Shown here piece after piece: positions 2,997-7,360 of a stretch of DNA of 37,796 bases; within the stretch, counting starts at the first letter, position 1, and the number at the start of each line of letters is the position of its first letter. Origin of the DNA: Comamonadaceae bacterium CG_4_9_14_3_um_filter_60_33 (lineage in GTDB: Bacteria; Pseudomonadota; Gammaproteobacteria; Burkholderiales; Burkholderiaceae_C); the NCBI GenBank assembly GCA_002789915.1, contig PFUD01000104.1:1-37796 (forward strand), given 5' to 3'. The position numbers and the translations under genes are program-made. The notes under the pieces were generated by a model. It had not been told where the DNA came from and ran no database searches. It saw only the letters and a program-made list of their open reading frames with translations.

Positions 2997-3911
2997 GTGA
3001 ACTTCGCTCAACTCCTCTTTCCCGATTTTTCGCTGATTCTGATTGGCTACCTGATCTGCCGTTTCACGCCATTAAACCGCACCGTGTGGACGCAGGTGGA
3101 GCAACTCGTCTATTTTTTGTTCTTTCCGGTGCTGCTGTTTCACTCCATCTTGAAAAGCCCGCTGGACCTCAGCGCTGCGGGAAACCTGGTGTTTGCCGGC
3201 TGGGCGCTCGGGCTGGGCGGCATCACCATGGCCTACTCGGTGCCTTTTTGGCCGGGCCTAAAGAAACATATGGTGGCGCGCCAGCACGCAGCCTGCGCCC
3301 AGGTTGCTTTCAGGTTCAACTCATTTATTGGCCTGGCGCTGGCCGAGCGCCTGGCTGGACCGCCCGGCCTGCTGGTGATCGCGCTGTTGATTGGCGTCAG
3401 CGTGCCGTTGATGAACATCGGCGCGGTGTGGCCGATGGCGCGCCACGCCGAGCGCGGGTTTTGGGGCGAACTGGTGCGCAACCCGCTGATCATCGGCACC
3501 GCCAGTGGTCTGGCGGCCAATCTGGCCGGTTTGTCGATTCCGGATTGGGCCGAGCCGACTGTGAACCGCATTGGTGGTGCATCGCTTGCGTTGGGGCTGA
3601 TGGCCGCCGGCGCCGGTATGCAACTGAGCGCGCTGAATCATGCCAAATTGTTGGGGGTCGCCGTGTTGTTGATCCGTCATTTGTTGATGCCGCTGTGGGC
3701 GCTGGCCTTGTGTTTGCTGTTTGGCCTGGATCAGGTGCAGGCCACCATTTTGCTGATGTTCTCTGCGCTGCCAACTGCCTCGAGCTGTTATGTGTTGGCC
3801 GCGCGCATGGGTTATGACGGGCCCTATGTGGCGGCGTTGGTGACTGTGTCCACCGTGCTCGGCATGTTGAGTTTGCCGCTGGCGCTGGGGTTTTTGAGGT
3901 CGTTTGTGTAG
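2997..3911 (+). CDS. AEC family transporter (auxin efflux carrier fold)
   Basis: The 304-residue protein is almost entirely hydrophobic, with about ten predicted membrane segments in two halves. It opens with DFSLILIGYLICRF and has the inter-half region RNPLIIGTASGLAANLAGL, both typical of bacterial AEC (PF03547) permeases. Relatives export or import organic anions such as malate, but the substrate cannot be read from sequence. The start is GTG at 2997, which puts the first membrane helix at the usual distance from the N-terminus; upstream in-frame codons would add sequence unlike the family. It is divergent from xerD with 99 bp between starts and is followed by the repeat-rich gene-free stretch. 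Confidence 0.85.
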   Translation: MNFAQLLFPDFSLILIGYLICRFTPLNRTVWTQVEQLVYFLFFPVLLFHSILKSPLDLSAAGNLVFAGWALGLGGITMAYSVPFWPGLKKHMVARQHAACAQVAFRFNSFIGLALAERLAGPPGLLVIALLIGVSVPLMNIGAVWPMARHAERGFWGELVRNPLIIGTASGLAANLAGLSIPDWAEPTVNRIGGASLALGLMAAGAGMQLSALNHAKLLGVAVLLIRHLLMPLWALALCLLFGLDQVQATILLMFSALPTASSCYVLAARMGYDGPYVAALVTVSTVLGMLSLPLALGFLRSFV

Positions 3912-3918
3912 TCAACGC

Positions 3919-4050
3919 GCGTTCTTAAAGTGGTGAAGTGCGTCATGCGGTCAACATATATTGCCGAGATCAAACAGCGGTGACGTGCTTTGCGTGGCGA
4001 CCGCAACTTGCCGCGTTCGAACGGTGGTGATGTGCTTCGCGTGGCAACCG
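3919..4050. repeat. Degenerate tandem repeat, 47-bp period, three copies
   Basis: The motif GGTGANGTGC recurs at 3932, 3979 and 4026, exactly 47 bp apart each time. The similarity extends around it: GCGTTC...AA.GTGGTGA.GTGC occurs at 3919 onward and again about 94 bp later at 4013 onward. Copies 1 and 2 agree at roughly 29 of 47 positions. A further partial match, GGTGAA, begins at 4120, again on the 47-bp grid. The third copy runs into the left arm of hairpin A. Copies are too diverged and the pattern too continuous for CRISPR. Confidence 0.6.
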
Positions 4051-4116
4051 GTAGGGGCGGCCACCTCATACTGGGGTACCAGAAATCGGCGACCACCCCA
4101 ACCGATTACCACGCGA
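4037..4116 (-). repeat. Hairpin element A: 27-bp stem with conserved 25-nt apex
   Basis: Arms at 4037-4063 and 4089-4116 are complementary at 21 of 27 positions. Read on the minus strand, five of the six mismatches become G-T (G-U) wobble pairs and one is T-T; read on the plus strand those five are A-C mismatches. The 25-nt apex (4064-4088) is, in minus-strand sense, CGATTT, then a mini-hairpin CTGG-TACC-CCAG, then TATGAGG. The same apex, with one substitution, caps element B, whose stem is unrelated in sequence. The strand bias of the wobbles suggests that the minus strand folds as RNA or single-stranded DNA. Confidence 0.75.
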
Positions 4117-4232
4117 GACGGTGAATATGCGACGAATGGTCAAATTCAAATTCATTCAAATACAGGGACAGCTGCCTTGTCGGTTTTGTGCATAACTAAG
4201 CGACGCCATCTTTGTTGATCGCACGGCGACTA

Positions 4233-4308
4233 GCGCAGTGGCTGGCTTTGGCGGCTGACGATTTCTGGTACTCCAGTATGAGGAAGCCGTCAAAGCCAGT
4301 CGCTGCGC
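4233..4308 (+). repeat. Hairpin element B: 24-bp stem with the same apex as element A
   Basis: Arms at 4233-4256 and 4285-4308 are complementary at 21 of 24 positions, and on the plus strand all three exceptions are G-T wobbles. The apex (4259-4283) carries the same 25-nt sequence as element A except TACT for TACC in the innermost loop. Elements A and B are therefore inverted relative to each other, with about 115 bp between them. The stems share no sequence, so the pair looks like one structural class with a conserved apex. It is not a simple duplication. Confidence 0.75.
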
Positions 4309-4336
4309 GGGCAAGGATCGCTGCCGACAATTTGAA

Positions 4337-4363
4337 ATTAATTGGAATCTGACCCCAATTAAT
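4337..4363 (-). repeat. Short palindrome of the REP-like family overlapping the queG stop
   Basis: ATTAATTGG (4337-4345) and CCAATTAAT (4355-4363) form a perfect 9-bp inverted repeat with a 9-bp spacer. In minus-strand sense it starts TAATTGGGGTCAGA, the same sequence that starts the repeats at 383-495 (TAATTGGGGTCAGAGCAC). The queG TAA (4359-4361) is its first TAA. It could also act as a weak transcription stop for queG. Confidence 0.6.
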
Positions 4364-5450
4364 GTCTCTGATCCAAAGCCCAGGCCACATGTTCACGCAC
4401 CACTGCACTTGGGTGCTCAGCCCGCGACACAAGCGCGGCTATCAACTGCCTGGCTGGCTCAGCCAAGCGCAAAGCGTTGCCCAGCGCCACCGCAATGTTG
4501 CGCAACCAGCGCTCATGGCCGATGCGCCGGATCGGGCTGCCCTCGGTAAATCGTAAAAATTCCTCCTCACTCCAGCCGAACAACTCAACGAGTTGGCTGC
4601 CCGCCATTCCGGCGCGGGCATCAAAATCAGGCAAGGCGCTGCGCTTGGCAAATTTATTCCAGGGACAAATCAATTGGCAGTCGTCGCAGCCGTAGATGCG
4701 GTTGCCCATCAGCGGGCGCAGTTCAACGGGGATGGAGCCGGCGTGTTCGATCGTCAGGTACGAGATGCAGCGCCGTGCGTCGAGCCGGTACGGCGCAATG
4801 ATGGCCCGGGTCGGGCAGATGTCGATGCAGGCGCTGCAACTTCCGCAGTGGCCGGCCACGGGTTCTGTCTCGGGCAAGGCCATGTCGACAAAGATTTCAC
4901 CCAAGAAAAACATCGAGCCTGCGTCACGATTCAGCAGCAACGTATGCTTGCCGCGCCAACCCAGGCCGCTCAAACTGGCCAGTTCGACTTCGAGCACCGG
5001 TGCCGAATCGGTGAACACGCGGTAGCCCAGCGGCCCCATCGCAGCAGCAATCTGATCGCTCAACTTTTGCAAGCGGTTGCGCATCACCTTGTGGTAGTCT
5101 CGGCCGCGGGCATAGACCGACACAATCGCTTCTGTCGGGTGCTTGATCCGCTTCAGTTCAAGCGCCTGCCAGCCCCCGGGTGTGTTGGCGGGCAGGTAAT
5201 CCATGCGGGCGGTGATCACGCTGACCGTGCCCGGCACCAGTTCGGCTGGGCGCGCGCGCTTGAGGCCATGCGCCGCCATGTAATGCATGTCGCCATGGAA
5301 ACCAGCGGCCAGCCACGCCGATAATCCGGGTTCTGCGCTTGTTAAATCGACACCGGCCACGCCAATTTGTGAAAATCCCAATGCCTGCCCCCATTGCTGA
5401 ATTCTGGAGACCCATTGACTGTTGTTGATTTGCTGCAAGGTGATGTTCAC
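4359..5450 (-). CDS. queG: Epoxyqueuosine reductase QueG
   Basis: QueG reduces epoxyqueuosine to queuosine in the tRNA wobble position using cobalamin and two [4Fe-4S] clusters. With the GTG at 5450 the protein has 363 residues, near the family norm. Features include YHKVMRNRLQKL (about 119-130), TDSAPVLE with the catalytic Asp (about 148), the ferredoxin-like CGSCSACIDICPTRAI (Cys202, 205, 208, 212) and GNRIYGCDDCQLICPWN (Cys255, 258, 262, with Cys228 upstream). A HEAT-like C-terminus follows. The frame stays open 600 bp further upstream, but that part lies opposite tsaE and does not resemble QueG. The GTG start overlaps the 5' end of the divergent tsaE; a TTG 12 bp further in is an alternative. 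Confidence 0.93.
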   Translation of the reverse strand: MNITLQQINNSQWVSRIQQWGQALGFSQIGVAGVDLTSAEPGLSAWLAAGFHGDMHYMAAHGLKRARPAELVPGTVSVITARMDYLPANTPGGWQALELKRIKHPTEAIVSVYARGRDYHKVMRNRLQKLSDQIAAAMGPLGYRVFTDSAPVLEVELASLSGLGWRGKHTLLLNRDAGSMFFLGEIFVDMALPETEPVAGHCGSCSACIDICPTRAIIAPYRLDARRCISYLTIEHAGSIPVELRPLMGNRIYGCDDCQLICPWNKFAKRSALPDFDARAGMAGSQLVELFGWSEEEFLRFTEGSPIRRIGHERWLRNIAVALGNALRLAEPARQLIAALVSRAEHPSAVVREHVAWALDQRH

Positions 5451-5945
5451 CTGCCCATTGTAAAAAGCCTGTATTGGCACGATGAAGTCGCCACTGGGCA
5501 CTTTGCCCGTGCGCTGGCCGCGGTGCCTGAACTGCGCCAGGCCTACATCGAATTGCAAGGCGATCTGGGCGCCGGCAAAACCACGCTGGTGCGCCATTTG
5601 CTGAAGGCCTTGGGGGTGCCGGGGCACATCAAAAGCCCCACCTATGCCGTAGTGGAGCCCTATGAACTGCCGAATCTCAACATTTGGCACTTTGATTTTT
5701 ACCGTTTCAGCGACCCGCGCGAATGGCTTGATGCCGGCTTGCGCGACATTTTTGCCAGCCCCGGCCTGAAAATTGCCGAATGGCCGGACAAGGCCGCTGG
5801 CTGCGTGCCGTTGGCCGACCTGGTCATTCAACTCGAGGTGGTTGATGACACCGCGCGCCAGGTGCACCTGACCGCGCAAACCGAGTTGGGTGTCAGCCTG
5901 CTCCAGCAGCTCGGGCGCACAGCACACAACGAGGCCAGCCCATGA
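5394..5945 (+). CDS. tsaE: tRNA threonylcarbamoyladenosine biosynthesis ATPase TsaE
   Basis: TsaE is the small P-loop ATPase that drives the TsaB-TsaD cycle making t6A at position 37 of tRNAs. The Walker A motif GDLGAGKTTLVRHLL and the following IKSPTYAVVEPYEL and WHFDFYRF...EWLDAGLRDIF are diagnostic. The frame from ATG 5394 gives 183 residues, but the first 20 or so lie in the region that overlaps the start of queG on the other strand, so a later start (TTG 5415 or beyond) is possible. The last four bases overlap the amiC start (ATGA), implying coupled translation. This tsaE-amiC order is common in proteobacteria. Confidence 0.92.
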   Translation: MLNSGDPLTVVDLLQGDVHLPIVKSLYWHDEVATGHFARALAAVPELRQAYIELQGDLGAGKTTLVRHLLKALGVPGHIKSPTYAVVEPYELPNLNIWHFDFYRFSDPREWLDAGLRDIFASPGLKIAEWPDKAAGCVPLADLVIQLEVVDDTARQVHLTAQTELGVSLLQQLGRTAHNEASP

Positions 5946-7360
5946 AACGCCGTCAACTGCTGCAGTCGGGCACCCTGGTGCTGTTGCTGGGTGCGCAACA
6001 TCTCGCCCGTGGCGCCAGCATCGTGGCAGTGCGGGTCTGGCCGGCGCCTGACTACTCACGCGTGACCATCGAGTCCGACGCGCGCCTGAGTTTCAAACAA
6101 AGCTTTGTGCCCAACCCGCCACGGCTGGCAGTAGACGTGCAGGGCCTCGACCTGAACCCGGCGCTGAAGGAACTGGTGGCCAAGGTGAGCGACAACGATC
6201 CGACCATCTCCGGCATTCGCGTTGGCCAGTTCGCCCCGCGTGTGGTGCGCTTGGTGTTCGACCTCAAACAGTTAATTGCGCCTCAGGTGTTCACCCTGAC
6301 GCCGGTGGCGGCCTACCAGCACCGGCTGGTGTTCGATTTGTACCCGACGCAGGTGGACGACCCGCTGGAGACCCTGATCGCCGAGCGACTTAAGGAAGGT
6401 GCCAGCAAACGCCTCGCCCTGCCCCCAACGGTTGACCCGCTGGGCGAATTGATTGCGCAACGAGACCCTACGTTGCTGTCCTCAGGGGATGCACCAGCCG
6501 CAGCCAGCGCAGGCGCCCGCGCCGCTGAGGCGGCAGACGCCATCGCGGCTTTCGCCTTCCCGGACGGTGCCGACGCAAAAAAGTCAGGTAAAAGGCTGCC
6601 CCCGCAAAGCATGCGCGCGCCCGCCCCAAGTGCCACTGACCGGCTGATCATCATTGCGCTTGACGCCGGTCACGGCGGCGAAGATCCGGGCGCCATTGGC
6701 CCCAGCGGCACGCGCGAGAAAGACGTGGTGCTGCGACTGGCCCACCGGCTGCGCGACCGCATCAACGTGGCGTCGAGCAACGGCAACCCGATGCGCGCTT
6801 TTTTAACCCGCGATACCGACTTTTTTGTGCCGTTGCACATCCGGGTGGACAAGGCGCGCCGGGTGCAGGCCGACCTCTTCATCAGCCTGCACGCGGATGC
6901 TTTTTTTACGCCTAGGCCGCAAGGCGCCAGCGTGTTCGCCCTGAGTCAGGACGGCGCCTCCAGCAGCGCCGCGCGCTGGATGGCCGCCAAGGAAAACAAG
7001 GCCGACGTGATTGGCGGCCTGAACGTGCGCGCCCGCGATGCCCAGGTCAAACGCGCCCTGCTCGACATGAGCACCGCCGCCCAGATCAAGGACAGCCTGC
7101 AACTCGGTGGCGCCATGCTCAAAGAAATCAGCCGCGTCGGCAAGCTTCACAAACCGCGGGTTGAGCAGGCCGGCTTTGCCGTGCTCAAGGCGCCCGACAT
7201 TCCCAGCGTGCTGGTTGAGGCGGCGTTCATCAGCAACCCGGACGAAGAGGCCAAGCTCAACAGCGACGCCTACCTGAATCAACTGGCCGATGCCCTGATG
7301 CGTGGCATCAACGCCTATTTCTCCAAAAATCCACCACTGGCACGCAGCCGGACTACGTGA
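5942..7360 (+). CDS. amiC: N-acetylmuramoyl-L-alanine amidase, AMIN plus Amidase_3 (AmiC type)
   Basis: The enzyme cleaves the stem peptide from muramic acid during septum splitting. The N-terminus, MKRRQLLQSGTLVLLLG, with RR followed by a hydrophobic run, looks like a Tat signal, as in E. coli AmiA and AmiC. An AMIN domain (about 28-135) should target it to the septal ring. After a linker rich in Ala and Pro comes the zinc amidase domain (about 235-465): DAGHGGEDPGA and EKDVVL (ligands His and Glu), SLHADAF (His) and VEAAFISNPDEE (catalytic Glu). The 472-residue length fits. It overlaps tsaE by 4 bp upstream and overlaps the end of the convergent DedA gene by 8 bp. Confidence 0.94.
   Translation: MKRRQLLQSGTLVLLLGAQHLARGASIVAVRVWPAPDYSRVTIESDARLSFKQSFVPNPPRLAVDVQGLDLNPALKELVAKVSDNDPTISGIRVGQFAPRVVRLVFDLKQLIAPQVFTLTPVAAYQHRLVFDLYPTQVDDPLETLIAERLKEGASKRLALPPTVDPLGELIAQRDPTLLSSGDAPAAASAGARAAEAADAIAAFAFPDGADAKKSGKRLPPQSMRAPAPSATDRLIIIALDAGHGGEDPGAIGPSGTREKDVVLRLAHRLRDRINVASSNGNPMRAFLTRDTDFFVPLHIRVDKARRVQADLFISLHADAFFTPRPQGASVFALSQDGASSSAARWMAAKENKADVIGGLNVRARDAQVKRALLDMSTAAQIKDSLQLGGAMLKEISRVGKLHKPRVEQAGFAVLKAPDIPSVLVEAAFISNPDEEAKLNSDAYLNQLADALMRGINAYFSKNPPLARSRTT

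What the first reader, a model, noticed from the sequence alone, without database searches (positions are those of the whole stretch)
4037..4308. Two inverted long hairpins share one conserved 25-nt apex but have unrelated stems
Elements A (4037-4116) and B (4233-4308) each have a 24-27 bp stem capped by the same 25-nt sequence with one change (inner mini-hairpin CTGG-TACY-CCAG). The stems are not homologous to each other, yet each is self-complementary. In the sense that reads the shared apex, all mismatches in B and five of six in A are G-T/G-U wobbles. A and B face opposite ways, so the preferred folding strand flips with the apex. This looks like covarying stems around a fixed recognition loop: a structured RNA, or single-stranded DNA recognised by a recombinase or transposase. 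I know no named family with this apex.
Basis: partly seen in the sequence, partly recalled or inferred. Interest (0 to 1): 0.75.

Follow-up and report, generated by a model that had tools for sequence, protein, structure and literature searches.

The report
Mobile hairpin family with fixed-length stems
The two hairpins belong to a family of scattered hairpins in Comamonadaceae-type bacteria, not found in the RNA library searched, whose shape (a stem of about 27 pairs and a small conserved internal loop) is kept by paired mutations while the sequence drifts, so some unknown protein probably reads the shape.

Summary
A (4039-4114, -) and B (4233-4308, +) are two of 13 places in this genome (two doubtful) and of over 200 distinct fetched copies. 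Members occur in 40 of 200 genomes of the window's family (34 of 141 genera); one clear hit lies in another family. The window has no Rfam match at gathering score. Stem sequence is nearly free but pairing is kept: covariation score 0.904 against 0.181 shuffled. Pairing drops after pair 27. Mismatches are G-T rather than A-C on the apex strand, 262 to 19, so one strand acts single-stranded. The best-kept part is smaller than the 25-nt apex: an internal loop GATTT/YATGA; the cap varies. Adjacent copies are almost always divergent pairs. Copies avoid divergent gene gaps (6 of 106 against 27 of 83), show no sense preference, are shared at 24 orthologous sets of loci, and one lies inside leuS of G081, absent in its congener. 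I read it as a REP-like mobile hairpin, recognised single-stranded by an unidentified protein with a 27-bp ruler. DNA or RNA is unresolved. A specific RAYT link and GTAG/CGTC REP membership failed.

The parts
4039..4114 (-). Hairpin A (A-type): 27-bp stem, 5x5 internal loop, 4-bp cap helix, tetraloop
   Evidence: CM R1 83.7 bits, E 7.6e-19; fold z -7.85
4233..4308 (+). Hairpin B (B-type): same architecture, with tandem G.A/A.G next to the loop
   Evidence: CM R1 82.2 bits, E 1.9e-18; fold z -9.77
4064..4087 (-). Shared apex in A; GATTT at 4087-4083 and TATGA at 4070-4066 form the internal loop
   Evidence: kept across caps
4260..4283 (+). Shared apex in B; GATTT at 4260-4264 and TATGA at 4277-4281
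4115..4232 (.). Spacer between the two divergent hairpins; its length varies between doublets
   Evidence: apex-to-apex distance 196 here; 87-276 over all adjacent copies
4331..4365 (.). Probable remnant of a different repeat (GGGTCAGAT core at 4347-4355, -), of the kind found beside the single-copy RAYT gene; a neighbour, not part of the hairpin
   Evidence: two such cores in the window, 8 of 100 shuffles have as many; core GGGTCAGA at 9 of 9 single-copy RAYT loci held and within 200 bp of 44 of 150 hairpin clusters
2997..3911 (+). Left neighbour: membrane transport protein (PF03547); its 3' end faces the doublet
4359..6059 (-). Right neighbour: ORF with epoxyqueuosine reductase QueG domains (true start not determined); its 3' end faces the doublet

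Best explanation
A and B are one divergent doublet of a dispersed, REP-like hairpin family. Shown: pairing over about 27 bp and a GATTT/YATGA internal loop are kept while stem sequence and cap drift; the constraint is on one strand; copies sit mostly between genes, avoid divergent gaps, are shared at orthologous places, and one lies within a gene that lacks it in a congener. Inferred: a protein binds the internal loop on a single-stranded hairpin and acts at the stem base, 27 bp away, as a ruler; spreading goes through such a hairpin, most likely as single-stranded DNA, because orientation is indifferent to neighbouring genes. The protein is unknown, and persistence at orthologous places implies that the hairpin also does something for the host.
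For: Covariation score 0.904 against 0.181 shuffled and at most 0.146 slid; 411 cells changed on both sides against 111.8 shuffled (40 sequences). Pairing 0.86 at pair 27, then 0.56, 0.64 and 0.41 at pairs 28-30 in 138 standard-cap copies, and likewise in 33 others. G-T to A-C 262:19 in 172 hairpins with a strand-neutral filter, 402:68 in all 209. Loop kept while caps are replaced. 24 sets of orthologous loci; 368 of 2725 compared stem pairs changed on both sides and still pair, in 109 non-independent comparisons. 66 of 70 adjacent copies are -+ (52 distinct by the script's key). leuS of G081 carries a copy, congener G185 does not. Single copies in co-directional gaps: 8 sense, 10 antisense. 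Divergent gaps: 6 of 106 gaps with hairpins, 27 of 83 without (150-800 nt).
Against: No protein partner found; the one family searched for (Y1_Tnp, RAYT) is in 190 of 200 family genomes, and no such hairpin lies in the up to 1.5 kb held around it. 314 of 2725 ortholog pairs are broken in one of the two. The number of stem pairs with two-sided changes (26 of 27) is reached by 43 of 500 shuffles, so that measure alone proves nothing, and the two pairs nearest the loop fail to pair in 24 and 18 of 40 sequences. A laxer extension rule gave stem lengths spread mostly over 25-36, with 42 of 209 hairpins broken off before 25. Purely mobile copies should not keep compensating at fixed loci. No target duplication or exact empty site was established.
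Confidence: 0.5

Rival explanations
1. A structured RNA: each hairpin is selected inside a transcript (its own or a neighbour's 3' UTR), where a protein or RNase III-type nuclease reads the loop and a 27-bp helix.
For: One-strand wobble bias and covariation are what a structured RNA shows; divergent gaps are avoided, 6 of 106 against 27 of 83; shared positions at gene ends.
Against: No sense preference towards neighbouring genes, though only 18 cases; no upstream sequence motif; by my arithmetic the shortest doublet spacers leave about 30 nt, too little for two divergent promoters; no Rfam match at gathering score; the leuS copy lies antisense to the gene.
Confidence: 0.32
2. A RAYT substrate: the hairpin is moved by the single-copy REP-associated tyrosine transposase of these genomes.
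For: Y1_Tnp matches in 9 of 9 hairpin genomes searched (NF047646 in G000, 81.7 bits against a cut-off of 80); GGGTCAGA repeats, found at 9 of 9 single-copy RAYT loci, lie within 200 bp of 44 of 150 hairpin clusters and on both sides of 33.
Against: RAYT is present in most hairpin-free genomes; hairpin-bearing G100 has no RAYT match; the RAYT gene has GGGTCAGA repeats beside it and not this hairpin; no GTAG or CGTC tag is conserved at the stem base.
Confidence: 0.1
3. No selection: the stems are kept perfect by template switching between the arms during replication (quasi-palindrome correction).
For: Would give compensatory changes without function; in copies bracketed by GGGTCAGA repeats the apex faces either way relative to the outer arms, as if the arms recombine.
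Against: Does not explain the G-T over A-C excess, the drop after pair 27 or the kept GATTT/YATGA loop.
Confidence: 0.05
4. Bidirectional intrinsic terminators between gene ends.
For: The window copy lies between convergent genes; gaps with at least one gene end are preferred.
Against: No T tract after the stem (T 0.07-0.17 at positions 1-8 downstream); 27-bp stem; orientation indifferent.
Confidence: 0.03

Closest known systems
REP/BIME repeats (GTAG and CGTC families; PMC3733652, passages seen)
   Same: Short dispersed palindromes, mostly intergenic, often as inverted dimers, also of two subtypes; complementary stem changes
   Different: Stem about 27 bp against 5-13 bp; best-kept part is an internal loop near the apex, not a tag at the base; no GTAG or CGTC found; shared at orthologous loci
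REPINs with RAYT transposases (PMC3116915, PMC2817692: start of abstracts seen; rest recalled)
   Same: Doublet unit, single-copy RAYT in the genome; 33 of 150 clusters lie between inverted GGGTCAGA repeats of the kind found at RAYT loci
   Different: No such hairpin beside the RAYT gene; RAYT also in hairpin-free genomes; hairpin without RAYT match in G100
BRE, betaproteobacterial repeat element (PMC3110155, passages seen)
   Same: 75-91 bp repeat, mostly between genes, counted in Polaromonas and Rhodoferax among others
   Different: Described there as conserved in sequence and at some loci tandem; here stem sequence is not conserved. BRE sequence itself not compared
IS200/IS605 ssDNA hairpins and integron attC sites (recalled)
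   Same: Recognition of a folded single strand
   Different: No linked Y1 transposase; integrase not searched for; best-kept part on the apex side; divergent doublets

Membership tests
REP (GTAG/CGTC superfamilies) | GTAG or CGTC tetranucleotide at the stem base | tested here: not met
   No conserved position upstream of the stem (at most 0.26 bits in -40..-1, 158 hairpins weighted)
REP (GTAG/CGTC superfamilies) | Stem of 5-13 bp | tested here: not met
   About 27 bp
REP (GTAG/CGTC superfamilies) | Inverted dimers in intergenic DNA | tested here: met
   53 of 150 clusters are -+ pairs and 149 of 150 lie outside ORFs of a home-made caller; 66 of 70 adjacent pairs -+
RAYT-REP / REPIN | Repeat flanks its RAYT gene | tested here: not met
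   No hairpin at the Y1_Tnp loci of 9 genomes in the DNA held; GGGTCAGA repeats there instead
RAYT-REP / REPIN | Repeat occurs only where the RAYT occurs | tested here: not met
   G100 has the hairpin and no RAYT match; one genome in 200 contigs, so a missing gene is possible
Rfam families | Score above gathering threshold | tested here: not met
   0 in the window; weak microRNA-like hits far below threshold; other loci not scanned
Intrinsic terminator | T tract after the stem | tested here: not met
   T 0.07-0.17 at positions 1-8
BRE repeat | Sequence identity with the published element | not tested
   Sequence not in the passages read; not fetched
IS200/IS605 | Y1 transposase linked to the hairpins | tested here: not met
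   No hairpin in the DNA held around 11 Y1_Tnp matches in 9 genomes
Integron attC | Core boxes at the base and an integrase | not tested
   No integrase search made

The most novel reading that the evidence does not exclude
A new class of mobile hairpin that acts as folded single-stranded nucleic acid: a protein not yet known reads a tandem G.A internal loop (GATTT/YATGA) and measures 27 bp to the stem base. Cap, stem sequence, orientation and neighbouring genes are all free, and copies are kept at fixed loci for structure alone across genera.
Probability: 0.4. Interest if true: 0.8.

Novelty: new variant of a known kind. Interest (0 to 1): 0.62.

Why it matters
Conservation of shape and length without sequence points to a molecular ruler, and here it comes in up to dozens of natural variants per genome. 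If a binding protein exists, the family gives a ready series of variants for its rules. It looks like a palindromic repeat that is maintained and not merely inherited, which bears on the old question of what REP-like elements do. The window copies match nothing in Rfam 15 at gathering score.

Tried and rejected
RAYT as specific partner: rejected as specific. Intrinsic terminator: no T tract. Own promoters or a flanking motif: none conserved. Sense preference towards genes: none in 18 cases. Replicon context: no exact apex in viral contigs; no match in plasmids or phages to the window doublet, a query whose stems are expected to differ. Autonomous element between widely spaced copies: C150 holds a methyltransferase gene and a companion ORF; L093 and L121 showed no transposase-like ORF by eye, no family search made. 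Generalised pattern CGATTTC..GTATGAGG over 399 genomes of the order: 53 positive; 29 new loci were read; besides the standard-cap copies of G114 and G087 two had a full stem (L200, L202), one had 18 of 27 pairs (L216, weak fold), the rest 8-15; the other places were not read. Common neighbour gene of low-copy members: none among 10 proteins of 8 loci. Papers: six searches aimed at this repeat or its hosts listed nothing describing it; one search listed RAYT papers. Only passages of PMC3110155 and PMC3733652 were seen. Not done: replication-strand bias, co-occurrence of other proteins, structure prediction.

Full report
Names. That the window's family is Comamonadaceae is inferred from the titles of public contigs with the same hairpin.

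Observation. A (4039-4114, -) and B (4233-4308, +) lie in the gap between a membrane transport gene and a QueG-domain ORF that converge on it. Each folds better on the strand that reads the apex, though the other strand folds too. The 24-nt apex pattern occurs twice in the window, 0.00 expected.

The family. The own genome has 11 apex copies. The covariance model R1 gives 14 hits there, one the reverse strand of another, so 13 places, of which C2 is weak (33.9 bits) and C150:5509 partial with a chimeric stem. By apex, 13 of 200 family genomes are positive, own included; by R1, 40 of 200 genomes and 34 of 141 genera. In the order, the apex was found in 3 of 300 genomes, all of the window's family, and R1 in 3 of 150, one of them (G221) of another family. 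In the class, R1 found 2 of 185, both of the window's family. Searches used stricter filters that lose weak matches.

Structure under selection. One search kept 158 hairpins with at least 23 of 27 pairs and picked 42 dissimilar ones; 40 of these were aligned, without gaps. That filter favours pairing, so the percentage paired (94.9) is partly built in, but not the covariation: score 0.904 against 0.181 (sd 0.012) in shuffles and at most 0.146 when slid; 411 cells changed on both sides against 111.8. The count of pairs with two-sided changes, 26 of 27, is not special (43 of 500 shuffles reach it), and the two pairs next to the loop often do not pair (24 and 18 of 40). Without any stem filter, 209 hairpins give 3378 Watson-Crick, 402 G-T, 68 A-C and 332 other cells in pairs 5-24. 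With a strand-neutral filter (at least 12 of 20 Watson-Crick), 172 hairpins give 262 G-T and 19 A-C. A-C on this strand is G-T on the other, so the excess means that the apex strand is what folds.

A ruler. In copies with no GGGTCAGA core within 120 nt, chosen by pairs 4-23 only, pairing is 0.94 at pair 26, 0.86 at 27, 0.56 at 28, 0.64 at 29 and 0.41 at 30 (138 standard caps), and 0.88, 0.82, 0.64, 0.39, 0.36 (33 others; some differ from the standard cap by one base, and one, from L028, is a mis-call across neighbouring copies). In 18 copies next to such a core the pairing runs further out. A laxer extension rule spread the lengths mostly over 25-36, with 42 of 209 broken off before 25. So 27 is where the average constraint ends, not an exact length of every stem.

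The core is smaller than the apex. Variant members replace the cap (CTGCTCGCAG, GTGCGTACCCGCAC, CGCAAAGCGAAGCGCG, a 47-nt hairpin in G221) but keep GATTT on the left and TATGA or CATGA on the right. R1 and the scans favour these letters; the loosest scan (28 loci) still gave them throughout, and L186 (TATTT), L045 and L036 deviate. The first cap pair switches between C-G and G-C (L237-L239). On paper the loop can form tandem G.A pairs; that is inference.

Arrangement. Of 150 clusters, 94 hold one apex and 53 a -+ pair. Of 70 adjacent copies under 400 bp apart, 66 are -+; some loci overlap, and 52 are distinct by the script's key; the rest are 2 --, 1 ++ and 1 +-. Near 30 of the 94 single-apex clusters another hairpin was found, of which I judge 10 by eye to be true partners. 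With a home-made gene caller 149 of 150 clusters lie outside ORFs. Doublets with both genes within 200 bp: 14 ++, 12 --, 8 +-, 1 -+. Single copies turned to sense: 8 ++, 10 --, 6 +-, 3 -+; 11 with partners were left out beforehand, one of them (L043) without support. As control, gaps of 150-800 nt without hairpins in the same loci are divergent in 27 of 83, gaps with hairpins in 6 of 106.

Age and mobility. Flanks on both sides match in 24 sets of loci. The window doublet is shared with a Rhodoferax and a Polaromonas MAG (L049, L112; flank identity 81-83 percent). In 109 hairpin comparisons (not independent; arms 50-99 percent alike) over 25 pairs each: 1814 same, 368 changed on both sides and paired, 202 on one side and paired, 314 broken in one, 27 in both. 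L049 against L112 shows one such double change in hairpin B. Yet copies arise anew: in G081 one sits in an open frame inside leuS, where G185 of the same genus has none; it is antisense to the gene. Other genomes carry unrelated inserts at that place, so it is a tolerant site.

Relation to RAYT. The GGGTCAGA core occurs at 9 of 9 single-copy RAYT loci held, lies within 200 bp of 44 of 150 hairpin clusters (1.01 per kb against 0.038 in the rest of the same loci, a control that includes coding DNA), and brackets 33. But RAYT is in 190 of 200 family genomes, G100 has a hairpin without a RAYT match, and no hairpin of this family was found at the RAYT loci (one search gave two 3-mismatch matches that lack the loop).

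Conclusion. It works like a REP-like dispersed hairpin recognised single-stranded; by the features tested it is not a member of the GTAG/CGTC REP families. Whether DNA or RNA is the active form, and which protein reads it, remain open.

Noticed in passing
L012 5509-7431 (own genome C150): A DNA-methyltransferase gene (NCBIfam matches below their cut-offs) and a companion ORF without a match sit between the two hairpins of a gap whose flanking genes look like parE and parC (names recalled); L151 has the matching flanks with an uninterrupted doublet, and one hairpin here has a chimeric stem.
   Followed up: partly
L242 and L232: A hairpin of this family lies inside the open frame of an MmeI-type gene (G057), and another just behind the 3' end of an MmeI-type fragment (G100).
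   Followed up: partly
L052, L046, L093 and other loci bracketed by GGGTCAGA repeats: The apex faces either way relative to the asymmetric outer arms (GGTC/TTCC), as if the centre of the palindrome flips.
   Followed up: no
L247-L256: The same point of the LeuS editing region carries different, unrelated insertions in several genomes of the family.
   Followed up: no
L020, L040, L047, L080 (G064 and a Polaromonas MAG with a contig of the same length): The fixed-length spacer (156 nt apex to apex) contains its own inverted repeat around GTAGCGCGCTACCGGTAG (by eye).
   Followed up: no
L096, L130: Contigs labelled Singulisphaera carry copies of this family; probably misbinned.
   Followed up: no
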